This document shows, one piece after another, positions 44,435 to 64,000 of a DNA stretch of 64,000 nt. The translations under genes and the position numbers were made by a program. Positions within the stretch are counted from its first letter, which is position 1. The number at the start of each line of letters is the position of its first letter. The stretch comes from an uncultured Dehalococcoidia bacterium (lineage in GTDB: Bacteria > Chloroflexota > Dehalococcoidia > Lucifugimonadales > GCA-2712585): contig OY282371.1 in assembly GCA_958295715.1 (NCBI GenBank), positions 811,183 through 875,182 on the forward strand, in the 5' to 3' direction. Below the pieces are notes generated by a model that was not told the DNA's origin, ran no database searches, and saw nothing but the letters and a program-made list of their open reading frames with translations.

Positions 44435-44953
44435 TCACAAGAGCGGATCCTTCCAATTGAATTTCGCCCCCAATTCTCGGAGCATGTCATAAGTATTTCT
44501 ATAAACGACTTCGAACTGCTGGCAGACATTGGGCAGCTTCACTTTTCTTTTAACGCTGTGGTCCAGCACTTCGTTGGTAACGATATCCATGTCATGTACT
44601 TTAGCATAGGCGACAAGCCATCCATCGGCTCCACGGGCAAACTCATCTTTTGCCGCGTCCGAAAATTGGGTATTATTTCTCACCCAATCCATAATCTGCC
44701 TATAGACTTGGCCAACGGATGACGTCTTCGTTGTTACAAACGCGCCTTTTGGAACTCTCCTCAGCCATTGGACCAGCATCGGCGGATCTATAATTTCGTC
44801 ACGCACACGGTCGATTACCAAGAGCCGGCCGCTCTTGAGATGATAGTCAATGGAGTCCCAGAAACCGGGGCATATGTCCGGCGCGTAATAGTTCCGGTGC
44901 GCGGCTATTATGACATCGGCGTCCGGAAGCATGATACGGCTCTGGCTTGTCAT
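44435..44953 (-). CDS. PIN-domain (DUF4411) toxin
   Basis: 172 residues from ATG 44953, overlapping the upstream stop (ATGA at 44950-44953). It begins with MLPDADVIIAAHRNYYAP, giving the first metal-binding Asp of a PIN fold. RDEIIDPP and DGWLVAYAKVHDMDIVTNE supply later acidic positions, a DUF4411 pattern. PIN toxins cut RNA and are silenced by a partner. Here the partner is the XRE-ImmA/IrrE protein encoded immediately upstream. The pair occupies the place where the 3' end of hsdR and the 5' end of the ygjP-like gene are missing. Confidence 0.82.
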   Translation of the reverse strand: MTSQSRIMLPDADVIIAAHRNYYAPDICPGFWDSIDYHLKSGRLLVIDRVRDEIIDPPMLVQWLRRVPKGAFVTTKTSSVGQVYRQIMDWVRNNTQFSDAAKDEFARGADGWLVAYAKVHDMDIVTNEVLDHSVKRKVKLPNVCQQFEVVYRNTYDMLRELGAKFNWKDPLL

Positions 44954-46122
44954 AACGGGATATCCATCTTGCCGGCCAGTTGGTCAAATAACCGGCTCTT
45001 CAACCCGGTAAGAGACCAGGCTTCCCGGTAAGTTAAACGTCCTTCCTTTGTGGCTCTGACAACCGCGCCTGCGAAGCGGCGGCCTATGCGCCATCTCTGA
45101 TTGGGCCAGAAGCTGCCTCCTTTGCTTGTTGGTTTCCTACTTTCCTCTTGTTGACGCTTCTGGTTTTTATAAAAGTCAAAAAAAGTGTCTTGGGTAATCA
45201 GTTCCGAATCAAGGGCCCGCCGCGCGGCCACAAGCGAACTAACCTTGAAATGATGGGCGATGGACTGATAACGTTCCTCTAATGGCATTTCGGCTCGGCG
45301 CCAGAACGCGCGCAGTTCGCCTTCGGGGACTAAAAATTCCGCTGCCACCCTGTTGCAGAATAGCTCTGTATCATCTTGTGCCGGTTGCAACTCCTCAAAG
45401 CGGGACACGCCTGCCTCGCCTATATACACGTGCGCCAGTTCGTGGGACATTGTAAAAATCTTGGCCGCTACGAAGTCTGCATTGTTCACGAAGATCAATG
45501 GAGCGTAATCATCCACCAATGCAAAGCCTTGGAACTCATCCGGGTCGAGTCGTCTATTAGTGCTGTTGTTCACGATGCCGTTGGCGACTATAAGCACACC
45601 GGCAGTCTCCAGCCGGTCCCGGAGGGTTCTTAGAGCGTGGGACCAGGTGCGTTCTCTCTCCGCCCATCCGTGTGCGATTCGCAGGGTCTCTCGCATTGCG
45701 CCGGCAACTTCGACATGACTGTGATTAAGGCTGTAGGAGCCAACGAAGCTGAGGGGTTCTGCGCCGTTCTCAATGAGGTCTTCACGCATCCAGGCTTGGC
45801 GCCGTTGCATGAGATAGACCGTCTCTAATAGGTTAGGGCTTGGACGGCGCTCCAAGTATTCGTTCCGAGTACGAAAATCGCGTATCGGCAACCGGTCTTC
45901 GGGCGGTTCAGAGAGGTAGAGGAAGCCCCGGGGAGTGTAGGTGCGCTTAGCGAGCAGGTCCACCTCTTCAACGCTAATGTCGCCGGTTTCCTCCCACTCT
46001 GCAACGCGGCTCGTCTCCACCTTAATCTTATTGGCCAGAGCGCCACGGGTGAGACTGGCGCGCTCCCGCGCCCATCGCAGCACTTTTGGTTGAAGTGCTA
46101 TACGCCCGTGTTGGCTAGTCAT
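44950..46122 (-). CDS. XRE HTH plus ImmA/IrrE (M78) metallopeptidase, antitoxin-like
   Basis: 390 residues from ATG 46122, three bases after the truncated hsdR stop. The N-terminal HTH (residues about 12-60: ARERASLTRGALANKIKVE...EWEETG) is followed by the fixed linker RTYTPRGFLYLSEPPED. An M78 peptidase domain follows with the zinc motif MSHELAHVYIG (HExxH, about residue 225) and ELFCNRVAAEFLVPE. Proteins with this layout regulate or cleave partners in toxin-antitoxin and mobile-element switches. It pairs with the DUF4411 PIN toxin by a 4-bp overlap. The C-terminal about 80 residues contain no motif that I recognise. Confidence 0.85.
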   Translation of the reverse strand: MTSQHGRIALQPKVLRWARERASLTRGALANKIKVETSRVAEWEETGDISVEEVDLLAKRTYTPRGFLYLSEPPEDRLPIRDFRTRNEYLERRPSPNLLETVYLMQRRQAWMREDLIENGAEPLSFVGSYSLNHSHVEVAGAMRETLRIAHGWAERERTWSHALRTLRDRLETAGVLIVANGIVNNSTNRRLDPDEFQGFALVDDYAPLIFVNNADFVAAKIFTMSHELAHVYIGEAGVSRFEELQPAQDDTELFCNRVAAEFLVPEGELRAFWRRAEMPLEERYQSIAHHFKVSSLVAARRALDSELITQDTFFDFYKNQKRQQEESRKPTSKGGSFWPNQRWRIGRRFAGAVVRATKEGRLTYREAWSLTGLKSRLFDQLAGKMDIPL

Positions 46123-48641: not shown

Positions 48642-50282
48642 TCAGGTGTCATGGGTTATCCTAGTATCTAGCAAATCAGATAGCGGTTTGATACGTAGCC
48701 TGAGTTTACTGGAAAGGTCCTTGTCTTTGCGAATCCGAGCTATCACCATACGCTGATAGTTCTCTTTGTTGCCACACTCAAGGGCTTGTGCGATTTTGTC
48801 AAAAACATCGCTCTTCTTAAGAGGATAACGGGCAATCAGCTCATCCATGTCGTTAGCGTTTGCCAATTTCCTGAATTGGCTGAGTTCACCGGTGTATGGA
48901 GATTTGATAGCAGGTGGGAGTTGGATTTCCTCCCCGGATTTCTGGATCTTTCGCCAATCCGGAGCAAGGGCTTCGATTTGATTCCGCACTCGTCTTTCGC
49001 ACTGCATGGCAGCCATTTTTTCTGGAAGACATTTTTTATTCAGAGCCTTCAAGCCGGATTGCGTAGCTTTGTTAATCAATGTGTTGGGTTCGTAGTCAAG
49101 AGATTCCTCCTGCCTGCGTCCAATGGCTTCAATGGCGTACCAACAATAGTAAAGAGCTTCAGCCGAGCATACGTCTAAAGCAAACACATTTCCTTTGGCG
49201 AGTTCTTCTATTTCATCCTGGGCGCGGTCGTCTCTGTCGATTAGTCCGAACGCCTCAACGCGGTGATGCCCCTGCGAGCTACGCAGGCCCTTCACGGCTC
49301 TAATTACCTCGTCGCAACTCCCCTTAGGAATCACCGACAGTTCTGGAAACAAGGCGCTATACAACGGCAGGTCAAGGCTGTTGGCCGTGCCCTCCACGAA
49401 TAGAATTCTTCGCCGTGACCCCAAAATGTCTCGCTTGAGGTCTTCCGGCAAATGCTCGCCTGACTCCAGAAGCTCGGTATCCCATGATACCGGCTTGTTG
49501 TCTTGCCACCCGCATGAACGCAGCATGATGATCCGGGCCGTTGGATTTGCCATTGGCAGCGTAATCTCATGGGTTGATATCACGAAGGCGCAATCTAGAC
49601 GTTGTCCGAATAAGGCGGATAGAAATGGTTCAATAATAGAACGATGAAGATGACGCTCCGGCTCATCAATCAAGAATATGGTCCCCGGGTCGGCCACGAG
49701 AACAGTAGCTGCCAAGATTGTAGCCGCTCTCTCGCCGTCTGACATTTGAGCCATGCTGTAGCTTAGATGGTTATCCTTATGCTGAGCTAGAATCTCTTCA
49801 CCATCAGAGTTCTTGAGCGAAATCTTAAGTGTTCCCAAGTCGAGTAAGTCATTGAGTTGCCTGAAAGGAGACGTAGACTTTGCGGCGAATGCAGTCGCTT
49901 CTTCCGGGTTATTGTTGTCGATGTATTGTCCAATAGCACGATTACGGGAATTGTCTTTGGCCAACAAATCAAAGAGGAGGGCTGACTGCCGTTCGATAGA
50001 CCTTTGTTCCATCCACCGAGCATCCTCTTGGCTGTCAAGGCTCATCCTGATTCGTTCGAATTGTTTTCTGCTTTGCGTTGAAAAGTCCGGGCTGCCCGAT
50101 GTAAGCCATGTTTGTCTGTGGGCAACGATACGTTTGAAAGTAGGAACACGCATTGATGAAACCCAGTACTGGAATAACGCAGATTTTCCAGCGCCGTTGG
50201 GGCCAACTACATATAGTTGCTGGCCGTGTTCAACGGGTATAGTCAGCGTATCTCCTGAGATTCTAGGAATAGTCAGATTCAT
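48642..50282 (-). CDS. AAA/ABC-type ATPase with DUF4435-like C-terminal domain, embedded in the hsd operon
   Basis: 546 residues from ATG 50282, chosen because GGAGGAACG precedes it; the open frame extends a further ten codons upstream. Walker A is [14 protein letters not shown] (about residue 25), the signature-like segment is MSDGERAAT (about residue 183), and Walker B is [12 protein letters not shown] (about residue 202), followed by VISTHE. The C-terminal part ([20 protein letters not shown] ... [14 protein letters not shown]) resembles DUF4435/TOPRIM-like nucleases. The gene overlaps hsdS by 20 bp and has visibly lower G+C than hsdS and hsdR. It may be an additional defence effector that uses the R-M operon promoter. 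Confidence 0.75.
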
Positions 50283-51534
50283 TCGTTCCTCCATGAAGTA
50301 TTGGCAAGTCAAGCTCGCCCACCTGGACCTCGCCGGTCATCAGCTTGTGGAGCAGGGCCTTGAACAACTCGTCAAGCACGGCCCGCTTCCGCCGGTGCAG
50401 GTCTATCTTGCGGTCGATGGCGTCTAGGATGGCCACGATTTCGCGTTGCTCATCAATGTCTGTAGTGGTCACAACTTCAATCTGTTCAAACACGCCCTTG
50501 CTTAGAATCGGAACTGGGCTCGGGGAAGCTTGTTTCCGGACATGTTCTGCCCAATATACCATGAGGTAGAAGGTGAACATCGAGTCAAAGTCTTTGGACG
50601 GCAGAATTGAATTGATCTGCTGGTTTGTCGAAAAGACTTCAAACTTTGCATACCCGACTTTTCCGATACTGGACCCGATACATACAAAGCAGGTAGCCTC
50701 CGAGGATATTGGCCTTGACTTCTTTAAGCCCTGTTCCGTGATGAGTTTCTGGGTGCTCTCGATTCTCAAACCATGCTCAATGTCGCCGGGCGCAACGAAT
50801 GGGACTCTACCATCGGCATAGTTTGCCGGTTTCTTAGTAGAGGGAGTGTTGCCAGTCACGATATGTCCTAGCGCCAAAATGGGTAGCCGTTCCCAACTCT
50901 CCGGCATCGGCCCGATTTCGGTCTCCTTCTGGGCCTCGCCACGCAGACCGCGGGTGAACAGCCTCCGCATTGCCGCGCGTTTGAGGTCTTGCGTGATGGC
51001 AACGCTTTTGTCCTGCGTTCTGATTGCGTCGCGTATTCGACCGAGCGCCATGCTGATAGCCTGTTGCTCGCAGAGCGGCGGCTGAGGCGCTTCAAGCGCG
51101 GCCAGTCGGTTGCGCGACAAATTCGGTATTGTTGTCTTGTTGCCGGCCCCCTCAAAGATCCCGAGTTGTGTGAAGGCTGATTGTAGGAAGTACACGTAGA
51201 AGCGCGGAATAATGTCATCGACAGAAGGCCGTAGCCGGTGCAGGTGGTTCTGAAATGACATCGTTTCAACTTCGCCGGTCCATATCGCCGCGCGCCCGAT
51301 ATCGCCACCCTCGCAAACGAGCAAGTCGCCTCTCTTCAGCAGCTTGGCAGGCAGTTCACGCTCCGGAATGGACATCTCGTCAACCGACGACAGGTCAATC
51401 TCATCCCAGAGGACGTTTGATGTCCGTAGGAATGGCGTCTTGTCGGCTCCATTTCGTGCGGCGGCAGACATCGTTTTGCCCGCGCCTATCTCGAACAGAT
51501 CTCCAATTGGACGCCAAGTCCAGGCTTCGTTCAT
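50263..51534 (-). CDS. hsdS: Type I restriction-modification specificity subunit S
   Basis: 423 residues; ATG 51534 overlaps the end of hsdM (ATGA). There are two target-recognition domains: residues about 1-160 ([15 protein letters not shown] ... [18 protein letters not shown]) and about 205-370 ([17 protein letters not shown] ... [13 protein letters not shown]). Each is followed by a coiled-coil spacer: [20 protein letters not shown] in the middle, and [20 protein letters not shown] at the end. The subunit reads the two halves of a bipartite DNA target and bridges two HsdM with HsdR. It appears intact, so methylation could persist although HsdR is truncated. Confidence 0.9.
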
Positions 51535-53176
51535 TGCAGACGCGCCAACATTTTTCCTAAATATGCGTCAATCTCACGGGCCTCGTCGTCGAGACGCTGC
51601 ATTTCGGCAATGGTCTCCGAGATTGGGCGATTTACTATGGCGTCGGCCTGCCCCACCCAGCGGCGGGGCTGAGGTTGTAGTCGGCCTCCATCGCCTGCTC
51701 CCGGGTGATGACGGCCACCTCGCCCTCCACCGGCTCGCCCTTGATAAACATGTCGGCCAGGGCTCGGATGTCTTCCTCCGGAATGAAATTCTTGGGGCGG
51801 CCCTTGCCCACCCGCCGGCTGGCGTTGAGCAGGACTATCTTGCCCTGCCGGTCCTCCGCCTTGCGCTTCGACAGCGCGACGATGATTCCCGCGGCGCTGG
51901 TGTTGTAGAAGAGGTTGTCGGGCAGCAGGACCACGCCATCTATCAGGTCGCGTTCCACGAACCACTTGCGGATGTTGCGCTCCCGGTCCTCGTTCTTGCT
52001 GCCGGAACCGCGAGTCACCGCGCCGGTGTCTAGGACCACCGCCGCCCGCCCGCGCTCGTTCAGGCAGGCCAGGGTGTGCTGGAGCCAGGCCCAATCCCCC
52101 TTGCCGGTGGTGACGCCGCCGGCGGCGCGGAAGCGGTCGAAGGGGTCGTTCTCGAAGATGTTCGGGTTGAAGTCCTGGTTCCACATGGGATTGGCGACCA
52201 CCACGTCGTGGGCGGCGATGCGGCCTGTTGCGGTCCTGAACTTGGGGTTGATAATGGTGTCGCCGCGCTCGATGCGCGCTTCCATGTCGTGGATGATGGC
52301 GTTCATCTTGGCCACGGCGTAGCTGTCGGATTGAAGCTCCTGCCCGAAGAGCTTGAGGGGCGCTCGGCTGGTGGGGTCCAGCTCGCGGGCGACCAGTTGG
52401 AGCTTGACCAGCAGCCCGGCGGAGCCGCAGGCGTAGTCGTGGCACGTTTCGCCGGGCCTCGGCCGCATGAGGTGCGCCATGAGGAAGCCGACCTCGGTGG
52501 GGGTGAAGAACTCGCCCGCGCTTTGGCCGGAGCCTTCGGCGAACTTGCGGAGCAGGTATTCGTAGGCGCGGCCCAGGAAGTCGGGCTGCACGTCGGAGAG
52601 TCCGAGCCGGTAGCGGGGGTCGGAGAAGGTCTCGACGACGGCGGCGAGCCGGGCGGGGTTGACGTCGCGTTCGCCGTTTCGCTCGGAGGCGAAGTCCACC
52701 AGGTCTATGACGCCGGAGAGGGTGGGATTGTGGCGGACTACCGCCCGCGCCGCCAGGGTCAGATGCTCGCCCACGTCGTGAGGGCGGGAGCTGCGGCCCT
52801 GGTCGTCGAGGGGCCACTCGTAGGTCTCGCGGCCGCTGACGACTCCCCACCGGGCCTCCGGCGGCAGGTAAAATCGCAGCAGCTTGGGGTCATTCTTGGC
52901 AATCTCCTGCGCGAGCGCCGGGTCTCCGAACTCCTCAGTCATCCGGTTGATCTCATCGTCGAACACGTCGGAGAGGCGCTTGAGGAACAGGAGGGGCAGC
53001 AGGTAGTCCTTAGAACTTGGCCGCGTCCTTCTCGCCTCGGATGGAGCAGGCGGCGTCCCACAGCATCTGCTCCATGGGCTTGGTGGAGGGAACGGGGGCC
53101 GGGCGGCGGCGGGAGCGGCGCCGGGTGACGCCGGCGGCGGACTCGGCCTCACCGGCTCCCGGCTCGGCGGCGTCAA
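51531..53176 (-). CDS. hsdM: Type I DNA methyltransferase subunit M (two frameshifts)
   Basis: The central frame (51635 to about 53015) contains [20 protein letters not shown], the SAM motif region [17 protein letters not shown] and the catalytic segment [13 protein letters not shown] (an NPPF/Y-type site). The frame ends early in AAGWGRPTP. One added C in the C4 run (51665-51668 on the plus strand) restores the usual ending, with [16 protein letters not shown] and a helical tail stopping at 51531. The N-terminal part lies in another frame (see 53010-53372), joined across a TAA. With both corrections the product is a normal-length N6-adenine methylase plus an extra HTH. Confidence 0.82.
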
Positions 53177-53582: not shown

Positions 53583-53611
53583 TTGACAGGATGATCACCT
53601 GACGGTAAGAT
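53583..53611 (+). promoter_or_regulatory. Strong sigma70-type promoter for the base-modification operon
   Basis: TTGACA at 53583-53588 and TAAGAT at 53606-53611 are separated by exactly 17 bp. The start codon of the acyl-carrier-like gene follows 28 bp after the -10 box, so the leader is short. The -10 lies inside the inverted repeat described in the next entry. Confidence 0.7.
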
Positions 53612-53641
53612 ATACTTACCATATGTAAGAGTGGTGATCAT
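53591..53641 (+). promoter_or_regulatory. Nested operator palindromes over the promoter and start codon
   Basis: Two inverted repeats are nested. GGTAAG-ATATA-CTTACC (53604-53620) covers the -10 box. ATGATCACC (53591-53599) pairs with GGTGATCAT (53633-53641), which runs into the ATG at 53640. A third GTAAG half-site follows at 53625-53629. These are suitable binding sites for the XRE protein encoded second in the operon, giving autorepression that the ImmA/IrrE protease could relieve. Confidence 0.6.
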
Positions 53642-53930
53642 GGAGAAGCAAGAAACTATCACCAAAGTAGTAGAAGCCGTAACCCAGGTGCAAGAGGTGA
53701 GTGGGCGGTCATGTGGAGGCATAGGTGCGTCCACTCGCCCGGTGCAGGACGTAGAGGGGTTCGACAGTCTGAGTGGCATAGAGGCCACCGTTATGCTCTC
53801 GGAGTCCCTCGGGGTTGAACTTCCTGAAGACTGCAACCCCTTCATCTCCGAAGATGGGAAGCGGGCGTTGTCGGTGGGCGAGATAGCAGACACTCTGTGT
53901 GCCTACATGGAGGCAGAGGCCATATTATAA
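53640..53930 (+). CDS. Acyl/peptidyl-carrier-protein-like small protein
   Basis: 96 residues from ATG 53640 (a GTG three codons upstream is possible). The C-terminal two thirds match a carrier-protein fold: EGFDSLSGIEATVMLSESLG has the DSL serine to which 4'-phosphopantetheine would be attached, followed by helix II and a helix near GEIADTLCAYMEAEA. The first 40 residues are longer and more polar than in standard ACP. It is the first gene of the operon, overlapping the XRE gene by one base (TAATG). A carrier next to nucleotide enzymes suggests that an acyl or aminoacyl group is loaded and transferred to a nucleobase, but no adenylating enzyme is visible. A degenerate, non-phosphopantetheinylated use is also possible. 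Confidence 0.65.
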   Translation: MEKQETITKVVEAVTQVQEVSGRSCGGIGASTRPVQDVEGFDSLSGIEATVMLSESLGVELPEDCNPFISEDGKRALSVGEIADTLCAYMEAEAIL

Positions 53931-54283
53931 TGAGTGAACACGAAGAGAAACGACGGGCAATCGCATCGCGCCTCCGCCTCTCCAGAGAGATGGCCGGCCT
54001 CAGCCAGGGTCAGGTAGCCAAGGCCCTGGGCTGGCACCGTCCGACGGTGTCCGAGATCGAGGCAGGTCGTCGGAGGGTGTCCGTAGAGGAGCTAGCAACC
54101 CTAACTGAAATGTACGGTGTCAACATCCTTTGGGTCGTGGGCGAGAAGGACGAGGAATCAAACCTAGCTGCCGACCGGGTGCAACTTGCTGCAAGGGAGT
54201 TGAGCAAGTTGCGGGATGAGGACCTTGAGCGAGTCCTCCAGCTTATCCAGGCTCTTCGCGCCTCAGGAGCCGTCAACGAATGA
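53930..54283 (+). CDS. XRE-family HTH repressor
   Basis: 117 residues from ATG 53930, which shares its A with the upstream stop. An open frame upstream (53897) lies inside the carrier gene and is not needed. The HTH is RLRLSREMAGLSQGQVAKAL through GWHRPTVSEIEAGRRRVSV (residues about 11-50). The C-terminal part has an acidic/hydrophobic helix (AARELSKLRDEDLERVLQLI) that may be the ImmA-binding or dimerisation region. It probably binds the palindromes at 53591-53641. It is coupled by an ATGA overlap to the ImmA/IrrE gene, the arrangement of ImmR/ImmA switches. Confidence 0.85.
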   Translation: MSEHEEKRRAIASRLRLSREMAGLSQGQVAKALGWHRPTVSEIEAGRRRVSVEELATLTEMYGVNILWVVGEKDEESNLAADRVQLAARELSKLRDEDLERVLQLIQALRASGAVNE

Positions 54284-55141
54284 CGGATCGGCGAACGATT
54301 GCCCGGCAGGCGATAGCGACTGCCCTGCGTACGCGACGCGCGGCAGGCTATGGGCTTTCCCATGCCGTTTGTGTATATGATCTCGCCGAGAAACTGGGGG
54401 GTAGAGGTCCGGTTTCTAGATCTCCCCAGCATGGAAGGGATGTATTCCTCCGCTTCCAGTCCCACGATCATCATCTCTTCGCTGCGCCCTCCCGGCCGTC
54501 AGGCATTCACCTGCGCCCACGAGCTGGGTCACCACAACCGGAGTGACGGAGCGGAGATTGACGAGCTTGTTGAGCAATGGGCCCAGCCGCGCTTCGACTC
54601 CAAGGAGTTCATGGCAGACTGCTATGCGGGCGCCCTTCTCATGCCCAATATGGCCGTTTCCAGGGCATTTTCAGTCCGGGGATGGCGCATGGAAGAATGC
54701 ACGCCTGCGCAGGCGTTCTTAGTTGCCGGCTACTTCGGCGTCGGGTACACGACTCTGATCCACCATATGCGAAGTGCGCTCCATATCTTGCCTGACACAC
54801 AGGCGCGGGCGTTGCTGAAAGTCAAGCCCCGCAAAGCCCAGTCATTACTGTTGGGATGGGAGACGCCTAATCCTGTCGTGGTAGTGGACGATCACTGGAC
54901 GGGGAGAGCCATAGACGTGGAGGTAGGTGATTCCATCTTTATTCGTCGTGACGCGCAGTATGAGGGCGCGTGCATTGAACCACTGTCAGGCGTAAAGCAC
55001 GGACGGCTCTTCCGGGCGGCGAAGCCGGGCATCGGACGACTGGAAGCAGGCGCCACATGGTCTGCGTTTGTCCGGGTCTCGCGTCGAGGGTATGTGGGCC
55101 GCAGCCTGTATCGGCACTGGGAAGAAGTAGACGATGAGTAG
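54280..55141 (+). CDS. ImmA/IrrE-family (M78) metallopeptidase, frameshift in a G6 run
   Basis: Translation from ATG 54280 gives TRRAAGYGLSHAVCVYDLAEKLG, then the frame is lost. If one G is removed from the G6 run at 54396-54401, it continues VEVRFLDLPSMEGMY and reads to 55141 without interruption. The zinc motif is FTCAHELGHHNRS (HExxH), followed by DSKEFMADCYAGALLMP. The C-terminal domain (about 130 residues, SAFVRVSRRGYVGRSLYRHW) is an OB- or SH3-like addition. By analogy to ImmA it would cleave or displace the XRE repressor on a stress signal. The single indel in a homopolymer makes sequencing error more likely than loss of the gene. Confidence 0.82.
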
Positions 55142-55895
55142 GTCACTGACCATAGAAGAAAACAACCTCTCAGTCGCCTGGGCTAGGGCATTCCTTCACG
55201 TAGTGGCCGCTTGCGAGATTGCGCCTCTGACAGTCATAATATGCGGATTCGACAGAGGAGAGCCTGTGGAGGTGGCGCGGATACGCCAGTTACTTGATGA
55301 CGCTCTGGGTGCGGGGCCAAAGGCGCTTTCTTGCCACGAAGTCGCCAACACTATTTTCCCCCACTCACTGTGGAACCCGCAGGCAGATCGCCAGCAACTC
55401 TACCAGCGCTACCGGCGAATCATGCCGCGTGTACTGCGGGACCGGCGAAACAGGTACGGCGTCTACTTCCAGCGTCTCATCGCGTTCGGCCAGGATGCAG
55501 CCTACGAGGGTGGCGTGAACCAACTGGAGCACATCATCCAGACTTGGCGTCTAGGTAACCATCGGAGGACTGCCTTGCAGGCGGGGATATTTAACCCAAG
55601 GAAGGACCACACCAACCAGCGTCAACGGGGTTTTCCATGCCTCCAGCAGGTCACATTCGCACCGCAAGGCGCCGACGGGCTGGCAGTGACCGGGTTCTAC
55701 GCTACGCAGCACATCTTCGAGCGAGCGTACGGCAACTACCTGGGCTTGTGTCGTCTGGGTCGTTTCATGGCCCAGGAAATGGATAGGGAGCTGACTCAGG
55801 TGACCTGCGTGGCGAGTCCGGCAAAGCGCGACAGGACGAAGAGTTCCCTGCAGGAACTCGCATTGGAGATTGAGAGAATCTTGAACCAGTTGTAG
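55134..55895 (+). CDS. Divergent thymidylate-synthase-like protein
   Basis: 253 residues from ATG 55134, overlapping the previous gene by 8 bp. The C-terminal half shows a thymidylate-synthase-like core: RGFPCLQQVTFAPQGADGL places Cys where the nucleophile lies, and FYATQHIFERAYGNYLGLCR matches the region of the phosphate-binding Arg and substrate Asn in normal enzymes. The N-terminal half (VIICGFDRGEPVEVARIRQL) has no close counterpart that I know. The classical RRxx and GxP-F-N motifs are altered, so the substrate may not be free dUMP. It may form a heteromer with the canonical relative at 57599 or act as a nucleotide-binding partner. Confidence 0.6.
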   Translation: MSRSLTIEENNLSVAWARAFLHVVAACEIAPLTVIICGFDRGEPVEVARIRQLLDDALGAGPKALSCHEVANTIFPHSLWNPQADRQQLYQRYRRIMPRVLRDRRNRYGVYFQRLIAFGQDAAYEGGVNQLEHIIQTWRLGNHRRTALQAGIFNPRKDHTNQRQRGFPCLQQVTFAPQGADGLAVTGFYATQHIFERAYGNYLGLCRLGRFMAQEMDRELTQVTCVASPAKRDRTKSSLQELALEIERILNQL

Positions 55896-55903
55896 GGGGT
55901 CAA

Positions 55904-56524
55904 ATGACAGAGCAACCATCGCTGGGCAAACTCATCGTATTCGAGGGTCTTGACGACGTCGGTAAAAGCACCCTCGCTAAGCGGCTCACAAGCCGACTCT
56001 GTGAGACAGGTGTTCCCTGCAAATGCCTCTCTTTTCCTGGGAAACAGCCAGGTTCTCTGGGCCGCCTGGTCTACGACCTTCACCACAACCCATCCCGATT
56101 CGGACTGAGTGAGGTCAACCAGACGAGCATGCAGACGCTGCATATCGCGGCTCACATTGACGCCGTAGAAGGACAGATTCTGCCTGCCCTCAACGCAGGG
56201 ACCTGGGTAGTCCTCGACCGGTTCTGGTGGTCCACGTGGGTCTATGGCGTCACCTTGGGAGTTCCTGAGAACTCCTTGAAGATGATGATCAGTCTGGAGC
56301 AACTCCACTGGGGGCAAGTAAAGCCGGATGCGCTATTCTTGGTAGAGCGCGAAAGTGGCTCGCCTGATGGTGGTGGGGGACAGCGGGAGCAGATACTTGA
56401 AGGGTATCGCGAATTGGCAAGCCGGGAGCAGACCCACTCGCGGGTGACTAAAATACGCAACGATTCTTCCGTCGAGGACGCACTTGCCTCCGTGTGGAAA
56501 ATAATCATGCCTATCGCCCGGTGA
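55904..56524 (+). CDS. Thymidylate-kinase-like P-loop nucleotide kinase
   Basis: 206 residues. The P-loop is FEGLDDVGKSTLAKRL (residues about 12-27), and the DR(Y/F/W) motif is VVLDRFWWSTWVYG, the position that contacts the thymidine base in Tmk. The lid region has PDALFLVERESGSPDGGGGQ. It is shorter and more divergent than housekeeping Tmk: aromatic residues replace the usual Tyr-Ser after DR, which may accommodate a larger 5-substituent. It would phosphorylate a modified dUMP/dTMP made by the synthase-like enzymes of the operon. The start is 8 bp after the previous stop. Confidence 0.75.
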   Translation: MTEQPSLGKLIVFEGLDDVGKSTLAKRLTSRLCETGVPCKCLSFPGKQPGSLGRLVYDLHHNPSRFGLSEVNQTSMQTLHIAAHIDAVEGQILPALNAGTWVVLDRFWWSTWVYGVTLGVPENSLKMMISLEQLHWGQVKPDALFLVERESGSPDGGGGQREQILEGYRELASREQTHSRVTKIRNDSSVEDALASVWKIIMPIAR

Positions 56525-57606
56525 CTCACCCAAGGGAGGGATTTCGCATCAGACGATCAGACAGGGGAGGGGGCCAACTGACACGGCTTGAGGAAAGAGT
56601 CGTCAAGCCGTCGAGCGGGTCCAGCCTCTCACCGGCGAAGCCGACCATCGTCTATGACACCTATTGGCGGTTCGCGATGGAGCGGCAAGAGGTGTTCTTT
56701 CGCCGGCTTGAGGGCTGCTCGCCGCCGTGGACGCACGACCCGATACTGGCCGGGTTCAAGTTCACGAACGCGTACCGCGCCTCTGACCGAGTAAGTCAGT
56801 ACCTCATTCGCCACGTCATTTACGAAGGCTCGCAATCTTCTGAGGAAGTCTTCTTCCGCACGCTCTTATTTAAGATATTCAACAAGATTGAGACTTGGGA
56901 GATCCTCAAGGCTGCGACTGGAGAGATAGAGTACTCTTCATATTCGTTCGACGCATACGACAACGTCCTGACGCAGGCGCTCGCAGCTGGTCGCACAATA
57001 TACTCTGCAGCCTACATTATGCCCTCAGCCGGCCGCGTCTTTGGGTATTCACGAAAGCACCGTAACCACCTCAGGCTGATTGAGCGGATGATGGAAGATG
57101 ACGTGCCGCAGAGGATCTCCGGGGCACGCACGATGCGAGACGCCTTCGGCATACTGCGGTCCTACCCGACCATAGGTGATTTCCTTGCCTACCAGTTCGT
57201 GACCGACCTGAACTACAGTGAGGTCACCGGCTTCTCGGAGATGGAGTTCGTCGTCCCCGGCCCCGGGGCCTTGGACGGCATCCGCAAGTGCTTCACTGAG
57301 CTTGGGGGCCTGACTGAAGCAGACCTCATCAGGGTGGTCACCGAACGCCAGGAAGACGAATTCGAGCGTCTCGGCCTTAGGTTCCGTGACCTCTGGGGCC
57401 GAAGGCTTCAGCTCATTGACTGCCAGAACCTTTTCTGCGAGGTGTCGAAGTATGCTCGTCTTAAGCACCCTGACTTCAAAGGGGTGGGCAATCGTTCCCG
57501 CATCAAGCAGATCTACCGCCCTACTCCGGAGCCAGTGGAGTATTGGTACCCACCCAAGTGGGGCATCAACAGCCTGATACGTCCTCTGGGAGCCTCTGAT
57601 GTTTAG
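56494..57606 (+). CDS. Alpha-glutamyl/putrescinyl-thymine pyrophosphorylase-like protein (HMUDK helical domain)
   Basis: 370 residues counted from GTG 56494; the exact start is uncertain, but it must precede YDTYWRFAMERQEVFFRRL. Conserved text includes FKFTNAYRASDRVSQYLI, EVFFRTLLFKIFNKIETWE, IGDFLAYQFVTDLNYSE and FVVPGPGALDGIRKCF. These are the hallmarks I know for the family described as 5-hmdU DNA kinase helical domain/aGPT-Pplase in phage DNA hypermodification loci, here as a stand-alone bacterial form. In phages such proteins act on hydroxymethyl-uracil in DNA to place a pyrophosphate or amino adduct. The flanking synthase- and kinase-like genes match that pathway. Catalysis here is inferred. 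Confidence 0.8.
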   Translation: MENNHAYRPVTHPREGFRIRRSDRGGGQLTRLEERVVKPSSGSSLSPAKPTIVYDTYWRFAMERQEVFFRRLEGCSPPWTHDPILAGFKFTNAYRASDRVSQYLIRHVIYEGSQSSEEVFFRTLLFKIFNKIETWEILKAATGEIEYSSYSFDAYDNVLTQALAAGRTIYSAAYIMPSAGRVFGYSRKHRNHLRLIERMMEDDVPQRISGARTMRDAFGILRSYPTIGDFLAYQFVTDLNYSEVTGFSEMEFVVPGPGALDGIRKCFTELGGLTEADLIRVVTERQEDEFERLGLRFRDLWGRRLQLIDCQNLFCEVSKYARLKHPDFKGVGNRSRIKQIYRPTPEPVEYWYPPKWGINSLIRPLGASDV

Positions 57607-58345
57607 GTCGTTTGAGGGCCCCACAGCTGATGGCGTCTGGCAACAGGTCGCGGAGGCGTTCCGAGCGGGCGAGGGTGTCCTCGCGCAGCCAAGCAGAGGA
57701 GGCGCAACGAAGGAGATCCTCCACGCTGCCATTACCATCAGCGATCCGAGACAGCGATGGGTCGCTTCCCGTCAGCCTCCTCTGAACGTCGCGTTTGCCA
57801 TTGCTGAGATTGTCTGGATCATAACGGGCCGAAACGATCTGGCCTTCCTAGAGGCATGGAACAGGAGATTTCGCGAATATGTCGGGGCTGGACCGAAACT
57901 TCACGGAGCTTATGGGTACCGGCTCCGCCACCACGTGGGCCTGGACCAACTTACGCGGGTATACCAGGCGCTGAGTAGAGACCCGAACACACGGCAGGCC
58001 GTTTTGCAAATCTGGGACTCGTCAGTTGACCTTCCGCAACAAGATGGATCTCCTGCTGATCAGGATATCCCCTGCAACCTACTCTCGCTCATAAAGGTCC
58101 GTGCGGGCAAGCTTGAATGGCTTCAGGTTATACGTAGCAATGACCTTTTCCTCGGGGTCCCCCACAATTTCGTCCAGTTCACGTGTCTTCAAGAGATCAT
58201 GGCCGGGTGGCTTGGCATCGACTGTGGAGGCTATCACCAGGTGAGCGATAGCCTCCACATGTACGACTATGACGAGGGCAGCGTACTCGCCTCAGCGCCG
58301 CTCCCTGAACTGCCGTCAAGTAACGGATTCGCTCGCGCTGCCTAA
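57599..58345 (+). CDS. Thymidylate-synthase/dUMP-hydroxymethylase-like enzyme
   Basis: 248 residues in the main frame, overlapping the previous gene by 8 bp. It has IAEIVWIITGRNDLAFLE, GAYGYRLR, and DPNTRQAVLQIWDSS (phosphate Arg). DIPCNLLSLIKVRAGKL holds the catalytic Cys, RSNDLFLGVPHNFVQFT the base-recognising Asn, and QVSDSLHMYDYD the His-Tyr pair. All key residues of the ThyA fold are kept, so it should transfer a one-carbon unit from methylene-tetrahydrofolate to dUMP, as methyl or hydroxymethyl. Context favours hydroxymethylation, but the sequence does not decide it. The frame ends prematurely; the natural C-terminus seems to continue in another frame (next entry). Confidence 0.82.
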   Translation: MFRSFEGPTADGVWQQVAEAFRAGEGVLAQPSRGGATKEILHAAITISDPRQRWVASRQPPLNVAFAIAEIVWIITGRNDLAFLEAWNRRFREYVGAGPKLHGAYGYRLRHHVGLDQLTRVYQALSRDPNTRQAVLQIWDSSVDLPQQDGSPADQDIPCNLLSLIKVRAGKLEWLQVIRSNDLFLGVPHNFVQFTCLQEIMAGWLGIDCGGYHQVSDSLHMYDYDEGSVLASAPLPELPSSNGFARAA

Positions 58346-58607
58346 GAAGGCGTCGGAGGCAGCATTCGTGGAGCTAGGCCGAAGGATAGAGCAAATGATT
58401 GCGCCTAGCCTTCAGAGGGACCAGCTTAAACGGATTGCCGTGTGGGATGAAGCCCCAGAGCCATTCCAGAACATTTTGGCTGTTCTTGTCGGCGAAGGGG
58501 CGCGAAGGCATGGGTGGCCTGATATTTCTGACCAGGCTATGGCCGGCTGCACCAACCCATTATACAAGGAGTTGTGGCGTCGGTGGTTGGAGAGGATTGC
58601 CACATAG
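58319..58607 (+). other. Frameshifted C-terminal extension of the synthase-like gene
   Basis: Directly after the last conserved residues of the synthase-like frame, the +1 frame reads TDSLALPKKASEAAFVELGR and continues with IEQMIAPSLQRDQ to a stop at 58607. It overlaps the terminal codons of the main frame and has no start of its own with a ribosome-binding site. An indel near 58325-58335 is the simplest explanation, giving one protein of about 335 residues. If instead both reading frames are real, this would be a separate 112-residue protein. Confidence 0.55.
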
Positions 58608-58723
58608 TCCTCGGAAGAGGGGAGTTAAGAAGATATCTGATCCGAACACTACGCCTTATAGGATTAGCTCCATTGCTATAATTCTATTGCGCGCGCTGTG
58701 TGCGAGTCGCCAGGCCTTGATTC

Positions 58724-58921
58724 ATGCTTGAGAACTACATTGACGTCATTGAGGCTTCGAAGATTCTTGATGTTCACTCCGATACGGTGAAGCGGTTATG
58801 CGAGAATGCAGGCTCGCCGCCACCAAAGTTCGGCAACAAGTGGATCATGGAGTTCGACCCGCTCCGAGTGTTTGGCAACACTTCTGATGGAAGGCGCGTA
58901 AGGGCGATGAGACTGTTGTGA
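58724..58921 (+). CDS. Small HTH (MerR/excisionase-like) protein
   Basis: 65 residues from ATG 58724. VIEASKILDVHSDTVKRLCE is a winged-helix HTH_17 start, and PPPKFGNKWIMEFDPLRVF is the usual wing plus Trp region of excisionase-like DNA-binding proteins. A TATAAT at 58677-58682 may give it its own promoter. It sits at the boundary between the intact operon and the decayed conjugative genes, so it may be the excisionase or directionality factor of the old element, or a recognition subunit of the modification system. Confidence 0.65.
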   Translation: MLENYIDVIEASKILDVHSDTVKRLCENAGSPPPKFGNKWIMEFDPLRVFGNTSDGRRVRAMRLL

Positions 58922-61765: not shown

Positions 61766-61845
61766 CGCAGTGGGCGGCGATGGCTTCCGCCCAAGCCCGC
61801 GCCGGTGGCCAGCATATCGAGCAGGAAGGCGCCGTCACGTTCCAT
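61732..61845 (-). pseudogene. HEPN toxin remnant truncated by a repeat
   Basis: ATG 61845 overlaps the end of the nucleotidyltransferase gene and begins MERDGAFLLDMLATG, matching the first helix of HEPN (DUF86-type) toxins. After about 15 codons it enters the palindromic repeat and ends at 61732-61734. The remaining roughly 90 residues, including the RxxxxH catalytic site, are absent. Confidence 0.65.
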
Positions 61846-62146
61846 AGACTACCTCTGCCGATTCAAGGATAGCCCTGCGACGAATGTAATTCCGGCTTCT
61901 CTGCACGGCCGCGCGGGTTACCATGTCCACGTCTCTGCCAAGGACCTCGGACAGTTCCTGCTCCATGCCGGCAATGTCCAACAACCCAGGAATTCGGTCC
62001 GGCTCGAAATCGACGAGCACATCCACGTCGCTATTTGGCCCAAAGTCCTCACGCAGCGCCGAGCCAAAAATGGCGAGCCGCTTGATGCCGTGTTCTTGGC
62101 AGAAGGCGGCGATAGCGTCACCGGGGATAGATGCCTGTGGGTTCAT
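61835..62146 (-). CDS. MNT-type nucleotidyltransferase antitoxin (MntA-like)
   Basis: 103 residues. The Pol-beta motif is intact: LAIFGSALREDFGPNSDVDV with GSxxRxDF and SDxDxLV, the three acidic positions that bind metal and ATP. MntA-like proteins silence HEPN RNases by adenylylating them. Here the HEPN gene is present only as a 5' stub overlapping the end of this gene, so the antitoxin is orphaned in the window. The frame ends inside the overlap as in intact pairs. Confidence 0.85.
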   Translation of the reverse strand: MNPQASIPGDAIAAFCQEHGIKRLAIFGSALREDFGPNSDVDVLVDFEPDRIPGLLDIAGMEQELSEVLGRDVDMVTRAAVQRSRNYIRRRAILESAEVVYGT

Positions 62147-62279: not shown

Positions 62280-64000
62280 CTATAGGAGTTGGTTCAGCGC
62301 GTCGAATGCGCGCTGGAACCGGTCAAGCGTCTCATTGTCCAGTTTCTCTTGGAGTGAGCCGATGTTCTCGCTGAAGAAACGAGCAGGCCGATAGTGATTG
62401 AAAGTCACGTTGCCTTGGAATGGATTTGCCTTCAGGCTCTCCTCAAGTCTTCGGAGAATCCGAGGATTGCCCTTAGCCAAGGCATCCGTAGATAGGGCTA
62501 CATCAAATTCTGAGTTTACTAGCTCAATGTAGAACTCCGGAGTGAACATGTCTTCTATATCGGCTTCGGCACCGCCGGCGAAGTCTGCGAATGTCAAAAC
62601 CTGTTGTTTCTTGAGCAATTTACTTTTGTAGAGATTTTTTACACTTTGGCTACTCTTCTTCTGAAAGTCGATGAGAACCGCGACGTTCAGATTTGTCTGC
62701 GCGCCAATCAGCGCCACGAACGTTGGAACATTGCCGGCGCCTCCGACGGGGGTGATAGTCCAATCGGGGCTCAAGCCGCGCCGGCCTCGCTTCTGAAGGA
62801 GCGCAGAGATGGTTTGTATGTACAGCAGATCAGAAACGCCTTCAACGACCAAGCAGTTTGGACCTATGAACAGCGATTGATGAATCTCGTAGCCAAGGGC
62901 GCCTTGAAGCGGGAAGAGGCTATCCGATGTTGCCTCAAGCACCTCCGTAATGACTTTAGTACCCTGTTGCTCTTCAGGTAGGTCCTCTGAGTCAGCATCG
63001 ATGCTCAGGTCCTGAACAATACGCACACGGTCAAAGCGTCCCGAATCCACCATAAATGGTGAGTGAGTCGTGTAGATAAGTTGATGATGGGGCTTTAGTT
63101 CTTCCTCGAAATAGCGTAGGAGGTCTTCCTGTGCCTTTGCGTGGAGAGATAAACCTGGTTCGTCAAGAAGTAGGATAAGGTTCTTATACTGTTTTCGAAG
63201 TTTGGAATACCATGCGAGAAAGGAAAAGAACCAGATGAAGCCTCTAGACCTCGTTTTAAGTGGCGTTGTCACCGCGTGCTTTGTGTCTTCGACGCGCCCC
63301 CAGATATTGGTGCCACTATTTAGTCCAGGACCGTCTTGGGGTAGAGCTTGGCGGATGTCGAACTTCATACGAAGATGGCGGTTCTGTGACCAATATCTTA
63401 AGACACTCTGAGTAAGCTGAATCCCAGCAGCTTCGAGCCGCGCTATTAGGGTTTCAGTATTGTCTGGATTGACGAGTTGCTCCAGCTTTAGTCCCGCTAG
63501 ATCTATCAAGCCTAGGAGCGGATGATCAGGTTCTTTGAGAGCATTTCTATTTACACGTGTCAAAAGTGCGTTGAGGTTGTCTTGACCTTTCATTTGATAG
63601 TATTCGTCAAAATAGAGGAAGCTGGGGAATTTTTCCTCAAGTATTTCGTTAAAAATGTAACGGGAGTAACCCTCCCCAGCGATTCGCTGTAACATCGGCG
63701 TCAGACTTTGCACTGCTTCAGTCTGCTCAGCATTGTGGAGAATTTGAATCATGTCTTCGGGCAAACTTAAACTCTTTAGCGCCTCAGCGACCTGCTGTGG
63801 GAGATTGGCGGCTTTTACAAGGTATGTCAGAGCAGCCCGACAATCGATTTCAATTCCACCAACTTCAAGCTTATTTTCATATCCTTTGCTAAGGGTCACC
63901 GATGGTCTATCGTTTGAAAGGCATAAGGGGCCAAAGATATTCTTGATGGCGCCAACATTTTCGGGGTCAAGTTCATATGTGGCTTGCACGACTGTGGCCG
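62280..64000 (-). CDS. OLD-like ATP-dependent nuclease (AAA plus TOPRIM), 5' end outside window
   Basis: At least 572 residues are visible, and the frame is still open at the window edge. The ABC-type ATPase part shows NLILLLDEPGLSLHAKAQED (Walker B and D-loop) and LIYTTHSPFMVD; Walker A must lie upstream of the window. The TOPRIM nuclease part has LFIGPNCLVVEGVSDLLYIQ (first Glu), VGGAGNVPTFVALIGAQTN and a DFAGGAEADIEDMFTPEFY acidic stretch. OLD-family proteins cut DNA and serve in anti-phage systems, alone or with a helicase (as in Gabija). A partner could be further left of the 5' end, outside the window. Its G+C seems lower than that of the surrounding genes. Confidence 0.78.
   Translation of the reverse strand, partial: ATVVQATYELDPENVGAIKNIFGPLCLSNDRPSVTLSKGYENKLEVGGIEIDCRAALTYLVKAANLPQQVAEALKSLSLPEDMIQILHNAEQTEAVQSLTPMLQRIAGEGYSRYIFNEILEEKFPSFLYFDEYYQMKGQDNLNALLTRVNRNALKEPDHPLLGLIDLAGLKLEQLVNPDNTETLIARLEAAGIQLTQSVLRYWSQNRHLRMKFDIRQALPQDGPGLNSGTNIWGRVEDTKHAVTTPLKTRSRGFIWFFSFLAWYSKLRKQYKNLILLLDEPGLSLHAKAQEDLLRYFEEELKPHHQLIYTTHSPFMVDSGRFDRVRIVQDLSIDADSEDLPEEQQGTKVITEVLEATSDSLFPLQGALGYEIHQSLFIGPNCLVVEGVSDLLYIQTISALLQKRGRRGLSPDWTITPVGGAGNVPTFVALIGAQTNLNVAVLIDFQKKSSQSVKNLYKSKLLKKQQVLTFADFAGGAEADIEDMFTPEFYIELVNSEFDVALSTDALAKGNPRILRRLEESLKANPFQGNVTFNHYRPARFFSENIGSLQEKLDNETLDRFQRAFDALNQLL

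What the first reader, a model, noticed from the sequence alone, without database searches (positions are those of the whole stretch)
53583..58921. Stress-switched operon that may make a modified thymine nucleotide or DNA base
One promoter leads an ACP-like gene, an XRE repressor, an ImmA/IrrE protease, two thymidylate-synthase-like proteins, a divergent thymidylate-kinase-like protein, an HMUDK/aGPT-Pplase-family protein and a small HTH protein, almost all overlapping or within a few bases. Synthase, kinase and HMUDK-helical families are the parts list of phage thymine hypermodification. An inducible bacterial chromosomal version with a carrier protein, inside a defence island and next to conjugative remnants, is not a system that I can name. 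It could modify host DNA, poison phage DNA or make a nucleotide signal.
Basis: partly seen in the sequence, partly recalled or inferred. Interest (0 to 1): 0.88.

Follow-up and report, generated by a model that had tools for sequence, protein, structure and literature searches.

The report
Inducible uracil-modifying operon with carrier protein
Bacteria of several phyla share this compact switch-controlled gene set, broken in the genome read here, which is predicted to fight phages by chemically altering a DNA building block with the help of a small carrier protein.

Summary
The gene list is real and not a chance cluster. In 61 of 80 related loci XRE, ImmA/IrrE and a divergent thymidylate-synthase-fold protein (TS1) stand together, same strand and order in all 61, with a carrier protein first in 56. 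The carrier's only invariant residue in 39 aligned sequences is the phosphopantetheine serine; a holo-ACP synthase lies in 34 of 59 such loci and in 0 of 14 TIR-type sister loci. A private operator, GTAAG-N5-CTTAC, marks the promoter: 44 of 44 sites in the loci lie there, and this 2.4 Mb genome has one. TS2 resembles MilA hydroxymethylase and the synthases of thymine-hypermodifying phages; HMUDK matches PF18723 (E 3e-113), with a fold like a phage 5-phosphomethyl-dU glycinyltransferase. Corrections: three frame breaks cut ImmA, kinase/HMUDK and TS2 here, against none in 93 control genes; kinase and HMUDK are one gene in close relatives; the small HTH gene is not conserved. Best reading: an inducible mobile anti-phage operon doing phage-like pyrimidine chemistry with a carrier arm. 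Chemistry and defence are predicted, not shown.

The parts
53583..53611 (+). promoter-like site TTGACA-17-TAAGAT; its second hexamer lies inside the operator
   Evidence: 10 of 12 matches; 3 sites found in the scanned stretch, 2.0 expected
53605..53629 (.). operator: two overlapping palindromes, GTAAG-N5-CTTAC (53605-53619) and CTTAC-N5-GTAAG (53615-53629)
   Evidence: a site of this type upstream of the ACP gene in 45 of 57 loci (dinucleotide shuffles mean 0.085, maximum 2); the first palindrome occurs once in the whole own genome
53640..53930 (+). acyl/peptidyl carrier protein (ACP) with phosphopantetheine serine S43 (GFDSL)
53930..54283 (+). XRE-type repressor (CapH-like)
   Evidence: capH E 9.5e-10
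54280..55141 (+). ImmA/IrrE metalloprotease (CapP-like; HELGH motif), frame changes near 54398
   Evidence: (capP E 8.2e-15)
55134..55895 (+). TS1: divergent thymidylate-synthase-fold protein, Cys169 and Asn201 kept
55904..56524 (+). thymidylate-kinase-like P-loop kinase, N-terminal half of a kinase-HMUDK_hel fusion in close relatives
56572..57606 (+). HMUDK_hel domain protein (PF18723), HhH-glycosylase-like fold; second half of the fusion, other frame here
57599..58607 (+). TS2: MilA/phage-type pyrimidine hydroxymethylase-like synthase, frame changes near 58278-58326; the ORF 58269-58607 is its C-terminus
58724..58921 (+). small HTH (excisionase-like) protein; not found with the operon elsewhere, probably not part of it
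48642..53176 (-). defence neighbours: AriAB-like ATPase (48642-50312), type I R-M specificity (50263-51534) and methylase (51635-53176) subunits

Best explanation
This is a conserved operon, frame-broken in this genome, whose XRE and ImmA/IrrE switch acting at a private operator likely turns on, during infection or DNA damage, phage-type pyrimidine enzymes that would use a dedicated phosphopantetheine carrier protein to modify uracil or thymine in invading DNA or in the nucleotide pool. Shown by sequence: the gene order, the operator, the phosphopantetheine serine and linked holo-ACP synthase, the two TS-type proteins with catalytic cysteine, and the HMUDK_hel domain. Inferred: (1) single-stranded DNA activates the protease, as in CapP/CapH and PprI/DdrO, and the repressor is cut; (2) TS2 makes 5-hydroxymethyl-dUMP and the kinase lifts it to the diphosphate, while other loci use MazG and a dCTP-deaminase-like protein, or a radical SAM enzyme, to supply the substrate; (3) HMUDK_hel, with its glycosylase-like fold, holds a flipped-out modified base; (4) TS1, which has lost several mononucleotide-gripping residues, works with holo-ACP in a last step that has no counterpart known to me; (5) the product blocks phage replication. 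In sister loci TIR and Nmad2 proteins (in one a SLOG-TIR protein) stand beside the same HMUDK_hel protein.
Against: No chemistry, no phage test. The window copy has three frame breaks. Among families recurring in three or more loci I recognised none that would load the carrier (not every family was searched). The kinase is TMK-like, not PF18748, and ADDT is absent from the nine proteins. MazG, not TS2, is the usual partner. 12 of 57 upstream regions and the Streptomyces plasmid copy lack the strict operator. Two of five plasmid stretches opened (Acinetobacter, Mycobacterium; 22 records matched) have HMUDK_hel without the operon. HMUDK_hel has no sequence hit in the PDB; its Foldseek list starts at E 0.058 and also holds unrelated helical proteins such as Nup85 and A2A receptor. 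Distant blastn with two relatives' genes found nothing in the E. coli genomes, so the validated E. coli system may be a different branch.
Confidence: 0.45

Rival explanations
1. The operon makes a modified nucleotide that is itself a signal or a pool poison, not a DNA base; in sister loci TIR, SLOG-TIR and Nmad2 proteins would sense it.
For: TIR plus Nmad2 stand with the same HMUDK_hel in 14 of 80 loci without the XRE/ImmA/TS1 block and in 2 with it; L054 carries a SLOG-TIR protein (PF18163); the kinase, MazG and DCD act on mononucleotides by family.
Against: HMUDK_hel has a DNA-glycosylase-like fold and its phage kin stand in DNA-modification clusters; 59 of 61 loci of the ACP class lack the TIR-Nmad2 pair (one of these, L051, has a TIR alone).
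Confidence: 0.25
2. HMUDK_hel is an N-glycosidase that removes hypermodified bases from phage DNA or salvages modified nucleotides; the operon counters phages with altered thymine.
Confidence: 0.13
3. A protective system: the operon modifies the DNA of its own plasmid or host against restriction, as phages do.
For: Found on plasmids typed conjugative and here beside R-M genes; phage pathways of this kind resist restriction (PMC6449724, passages and start of abstract).
Against: A repressor-protease switch fits an emergency response better than permanent protection.
Confidence: 0.1
4. The carrier protein is a regulator or stress sensor of the XRE/ImmA switch and has no part in the chemistry (this could be true together with any of the other readings of the enzymes).
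For: Its gene lies first, next to the repressor gene (median 14 bases between profile matches).
Against: It travels with TS1 and AcpS, is absent by profile from the 14 TIR-Nmad2-only loci, and its one invariant residue is the arm site.
Confidence: 0.15

Closest known systems
Phage thymidine hypermodification clusters (Pseudomonas phages M6, PaMx11; ViI by recall)
   Same: A TS-type synthase closest to TS2 and an HMUDK_hel protein stand in one cluster
   Different: Phage kinase is a different P-loop family (PF18748 E 7.7e-18 in M6, weak 0.002 in PaMx11); both phages carry ADDT (PF18724), the nine window proteins do not; no ACP, AcpS, XRE or ImmA gene is annotated in the 50 kb of each phage that I listed (not searched by profile beyond ten proteins)
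DefensePredictor E. coli systems with TS, dNMP kinase, 5-hmdU kinase and NMAD domains (PMC13092281; sections 5 and 8 and passages read)
   Same: The same domain kinds appear among domains newly validated in anti-phage defence (TS, 5-hydroxymethyluracil kinase) or in the figure legend
   Different: 'acyl carrier' and 'IrrE' do not occur in its main text; figures and supplements are not held, so which domains share a system is not known to me
CapH/CapP and DdrO/PprI (IrrE) switches
   Same: XRE repressor plus ImmA/IrrE protease gene pair; PADLOC capH 9.5e-10, capP 8.2e-15
   Different: Here an ACP gene precedes the pair and TS1 follows it; cleavage untested
MilA CMP 5-hydroxymethylase
   Same: Best solved relative of TS2 (E 2.4e-43), and the only molecule found for the TS1 profile in the PDB at E up to 0.01 (two sequences, best 0.0034)
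   Different: TS2 has Asn (16 of 17 rows) where MilA has Asp, so a uracil substrate is likely

Membership tests
Phage thymidine hypermodification pathway | TS-type synthase of the pathway | tested here: met
   TS2 profile against PaMx11 gp51 202 bits and M6 gp58 156 bits; hydroxymethylase activity is inferred
Phage thymidine hypermodification pathway | HMUDK_hel protein (PF18723) | tested here: met
   E 2.7e-113; PaMx11 gp50 and M6 gp55 carry it too
Phage thymidine hypermodification pathway | 5-hmdU DNA kinase of family PF18748 | tested here: not met
   PF02223 is the only family over its cut-off; PF18748 not listed at E up to 1
Phage thymidine hypermodification pathway | amino acid:DNA transferase ADDT (PF18724) | tested here: not met
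   None of the nine window proteins matches at E up to 1; M6 gp51 and PaMx11 gp46 do
Phage thymidine hypermodification pathway | modified thymine in DNA | not testable with these tools
   needs nucleoside mass spectrometry
Acyl carrier protein | phosphopantetheine attachment serine | tested here: met
   only invariant column in 39 rows; ACP profile finds solved ACPs, best E 4e-6
Acyl carrier protein | Pfam PP-binding cut-off for the window protein | tested here: not met
   17.9 bits against 20.8; so I call it ACP-like by family profile, serine and AcpS linkage, not by Pfam cut-off
Acyl carrier protein | carries the arm in the cell | not testable with these tools
   AcpS linked in 34 of 59 ACP-class loci is indirect support
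Thymidylate synthase (TS1) | fold and nucleophilic Cys with uracil-reading Asn | tested here: met
Thymidylate synthase (TS1) | phosphate Arg and HxY of mononucleotide binding | tested here: not met
   Arg in 5 of 39 rows at the aligned site; no His or Tyr at the HxY columns, placed by ungapped extension beyond the end of the profile alignment; a second basic pair at 144-145 is mostly kept (Arg in 33 and 26 of 39)
CapH/CapP-type switch | XRE plus ImmA/IrrE with HExxH, and a palindromic operator at the operon promoter | tested here: met
   HELGH visible in the sequence
CapH/CapP-type switch | ssDNA-activated cleavage of the repressor | not testable with these tools
   biochemistry needed
HhH-GPD glycosylase / 5-PmdU transferase fold (HMUDK_hel) | shared fold | tested here: inconclusive
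DefensePredictor TS / 5-hmdU-kinase system | same gene set as the validated E. coli operon | tested here: inconclusive
   figures and supplements not held; distant blastn of two relatives in E. coli found nothing

The most novel reading that the evidence does not exclude
Carrier-protein chemistry on DNA bases: TS1 forms a methylene-uracil intermediate and the free thiol of the holo-ACP arm attacks it, giving a nucleotide or a phage DNA base tethered through a thioether to a protein, with HMUDK_hel presenting the base. No dedicated loading enzyme would then be needed, and TS1 would not need to grip a free mononucleotide, which fits both oddities of the operon.
Probability: 0.12. Interest if true: 0.95.

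Novelty: new variant of a known kind. Interest (0 to 1): 0.8.

Why it matters
A carrier protein with its own holo-synthase, wired by one private operator into phage-style thymine chemistry and shared between phyla, is a combination that I did not see in the capped listings of nine literature searches (two returned nothing). If it works as predicted, bacteria turn phage DNA-hypermodification chemistry back on phages, and ACPs gain a role outside lipid, polyketide and peptide assembly. Apparently intact copies on plasmids make it directly testable. Two papers likely to touch it (Iyer 2013, Burroughs 2015) are not held, so priority is not certain.

Tried and rejected
Considered and rejected. (1) Chance or local cluster: rejected by 61 of 61 order conservation. 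(2) The small HTH gene as a member: it matched only L001, the own locus. (4) Genome-wide sequencing error as the cause of the breaks: 0 true breaks in 93 orthologues, 30,641 aa (one flagged case is three tandem full-length copies; a smaller earlier run found 0 of 12 and, in the other direction, 0 of 13). A local assembly error cannot be excluded without reads. (5) E. coli homologue by distant blastn with L060 and L044: none. (6) PDB relatives of HMUDK_hel by sequence: none at E up to 1. (7) A published description of this operon: not seen in the listings.

Limits of the counts. The 80 loci are the best of 219 by likeness to the window's HMUDK, so they lean to the window's class; 5 of the 80 fall in neither class as counted (L009, L025, L034, L042, L070, several cut by contig ends). 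Alignments used part of what was at hand: TS1 39 rows (window plus 38 of 63 listed), ACP 39 (window plus 38 of 55), HMUDK 29 (window plus 28 of 84), TS2 17 (window plus all 16). The 400-genome Chloroflexota survey (own genome included) is less biased: 11 genomes with PF18723, 12 places; own plus 9 stretches examined, two weak or partial places not. Of the 9: one full ACP class (L098), three papain-peptidase type (L101-L103), two TIR/Nmad2 (L100, L106), one kinase-HMUDK-TS2 (L104), two HMUDK alone (L099, L105). TS1 weak hits outside the system: 2 (E 1.8e-7 and 8.9e-6); one TIR/Nmad2 locus (L014) has TS1 fragments. ACP profile hits beyond the two operon hits are at E 3.5e-5 or weaker and look like housekeeping ACPs (72 of 400 genomes hit in all). 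Five of 61 loci lack ACP by profile (L028, whose left end is cut, L037, L040, L050, L072); an ACP-like ORF with a DSL/FDSL motif lies upstream of XRE in L040 and L072, and in viral L002. 12 of 57 upstream regions lack the strict operator, and the annotated Streptomyces plasmid copy (L164) has none. Of 22 plasmid records with a match five were opened: three carry the operon (Streptomyces, Nostoc, Rhizobium), two do not (Acinetobacter, Mycobacterium). Rows missing from the VIA lists are not evidence.
Full report
What is in the window. Between 53583 and 58607 lies one operon: carrier protein (ACP), XRE, ImmA/IrrE, a divergent TS-fold protein (TS1), a thymidylate-kinase-like protein, an HMUDK_hel protein (PF18723, E 2.7e-113) and a second synthase (TS2, PF00303, E 1.2e-21). 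Type I R-M subunits and an AriAB-like protein lie just upstream on the other strand, so the defence-island setting holds.

The window copy is broken. Against the close relatives L007 and L008, ImmA changes frame near 54398, kinase and HMUDK change frame at about 56524-56572, and TS2 near 58278-58326. In the 120 best HMUDK homologues listed (of 7,999 scored) 103 are single kinase-HMUDK_hel proteins. As a control, 610 ORFs of a same-genus genome found 93 orthologues in 680 kb of this genome plus the window, 30,641 aa, with no true frame change. Decay of a mobile operon is the likelier cause; a local assembly error is not excluded.

A conserved system. Of 219 related genome loci the best 80 were kept. 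In 61 of them XRE, ImmA/IrrE and TS1 stand together, on one strand and in the same order in all 61, with a carrier protein first in 56. The record titles, as I read them, span Chloroflexota, Planctomycetota, Cyanobacteriota, Bacteroidota, Acidobacteriota, Myxococcota, Ignavibacteriae and Pseudomonadota (many are MAGs, so single labels may be wrong). RefSeq annotation of plasmids shows the block independently: Nostoc and Rhizobium plasmids, both typed conjugative, carry HTH, ImmA/IrrE, thymidylate synthase, 'nucleotide kinase domain' and NTP pyrophosphohydrolase genes in the same order, the Rhizobium one also holo-ACP synthase; on a Streptomyces plasmid 'acyl carrier protein', HTH and ImmA/IrrE genes stand beside the kinase-domain and pyrophosphohydrolase genes. 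Two further plasmid stretches opened have HMUDK_hel without the block. Near this genome it is rare: PF18723 in 1 of 60 genomes, the own one, and in 11 of 400 Chloroflexota genomes, own included. In those 400 all 5 strong TS1 hits lie within 4 kb of PF18723; two weak TS1 hits do not.

The carrier protein is real. In 39 aligned members the only invariant column is the phosphopantetheine serine. The family profile finds solved ACPs (best E 4e-6). A holo-ACP synthase (PF01648, E 3.7e-18 in L016) lies in 34 of 59 loci of this class and in 0 of 14 loci of the sister class (Fisher p 4.5e-5). Among families recurring in three or more loci I recognised no loading enzyme (representatives of the main ones were checked in Pfam, others read by eye).

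The switch. The XRE and ImmA/IrrE proteins match PADLOC capH and capP (9.5e-10 and 8.2e-15); CapP and PprI are reported to act on their repressors when bound to single-stranded DNA (PMC10904395 and PMC13373217, passages). Found here: a palindrome GTAAG-N5-CTTAC, often with an overlapping CTTAC-N5-GTAAG. Sites of this family (arms 1-7 bases apart) stand upstream of the ACP gene in 45 of 57 loci (56 genome loci and the window), against a mean of 0.085 and a maximum of 2 in 200 rounds of dinucleotide shuffles. All 44 exact GTAAG-N5-CTTAC sites in loci L002-L086 and the window lie there, and this 2.4 Mb genome has exactly one. In the window it covers the second promoter hexamer. A TTGACA-like hexamer (5 of 6 or better) lies within 40 bases upstream in 32 of 44, at 16-18 bases from the TAAG in 13 of them.

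Variable modules. In the 61 loci a substrate-supply module is nearly always present: MazG-type in 43, TS2 in 12, radical SAM in 5, none in 3; two loci have both MazG and TS2. HMUDK_hel is fused to the kinase in 12 and to MazG in 4 of the 80 loci. A dCTP-deaminase-like gene is found in both classes (27 of 59, 5 of 14). In 16 loci the same HMUDK_hel stands with a ThsB-like TIR and an Nmad2 protein (2 of them also carry the ACP class); of these L054 was scanned and carries a SLOG-TIR protein. In a small group a papain-like peptidase gene joins the operon.

Reading. An inducible, mobile operon that likely modifies pyrimidines against phages, with a carrier-arm step of a kind not known to me. It is not filed as a phage-type hypermodification pathway, because PF18748 and ADDT were tested and not met. 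The nearest experimental support is the DefensePredictor screen, which reports 5-hydroxymethyluracil kinase and thymidylate synthase among domains newly validated in defence (PMC13092281; sections 5 and 8 read, figures not held).

Noticed in passing
window 24738-43544 (-): A single open reading frame of 6,268 codons; not studied.
   Followed up: no
window 44435-46122 (-): A pair of an XRE-plus-ImmA/IrrE-like protein and a small PIN-like protein that looks like a toxin-antitoxin module (by eye; a weak ImmA profile hit on the minus strand of the window appears).
   Followed up: no
window 61835-62146 and 62280-63989 (-): A small nucleotidyltransferase-like ORF (by eye) beside an OLD/AriA-like ATPase.
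   Followed up: partly
L054, L047, L055, L059, L063, L080, L083: Sister class without ACP: a shared protein family F14 (SLOG plus TIR where scanned, L054), ThsB-like TIR, Nmad2, MazG-like and HMUDK_hel in one cluster.
   Followed up: partly
L043 and L073: Both classes (ACP/TS1 and TIR/Nmad2) side by side in one locus.
   Followed up: no
L002, L037, L040, L050, L072, L101-L103: Subtype with a papain-like peptidase gene next to ImmA and TS1 and a divergent ACP-like ORF upstream in some.
   Followed up: partly
L003 and L004: Two large viral contigs (301 and 159 kb) carry an HMUDK_hel gene about 49% identical to the window's, without the other operon genes.
   Followed up: no
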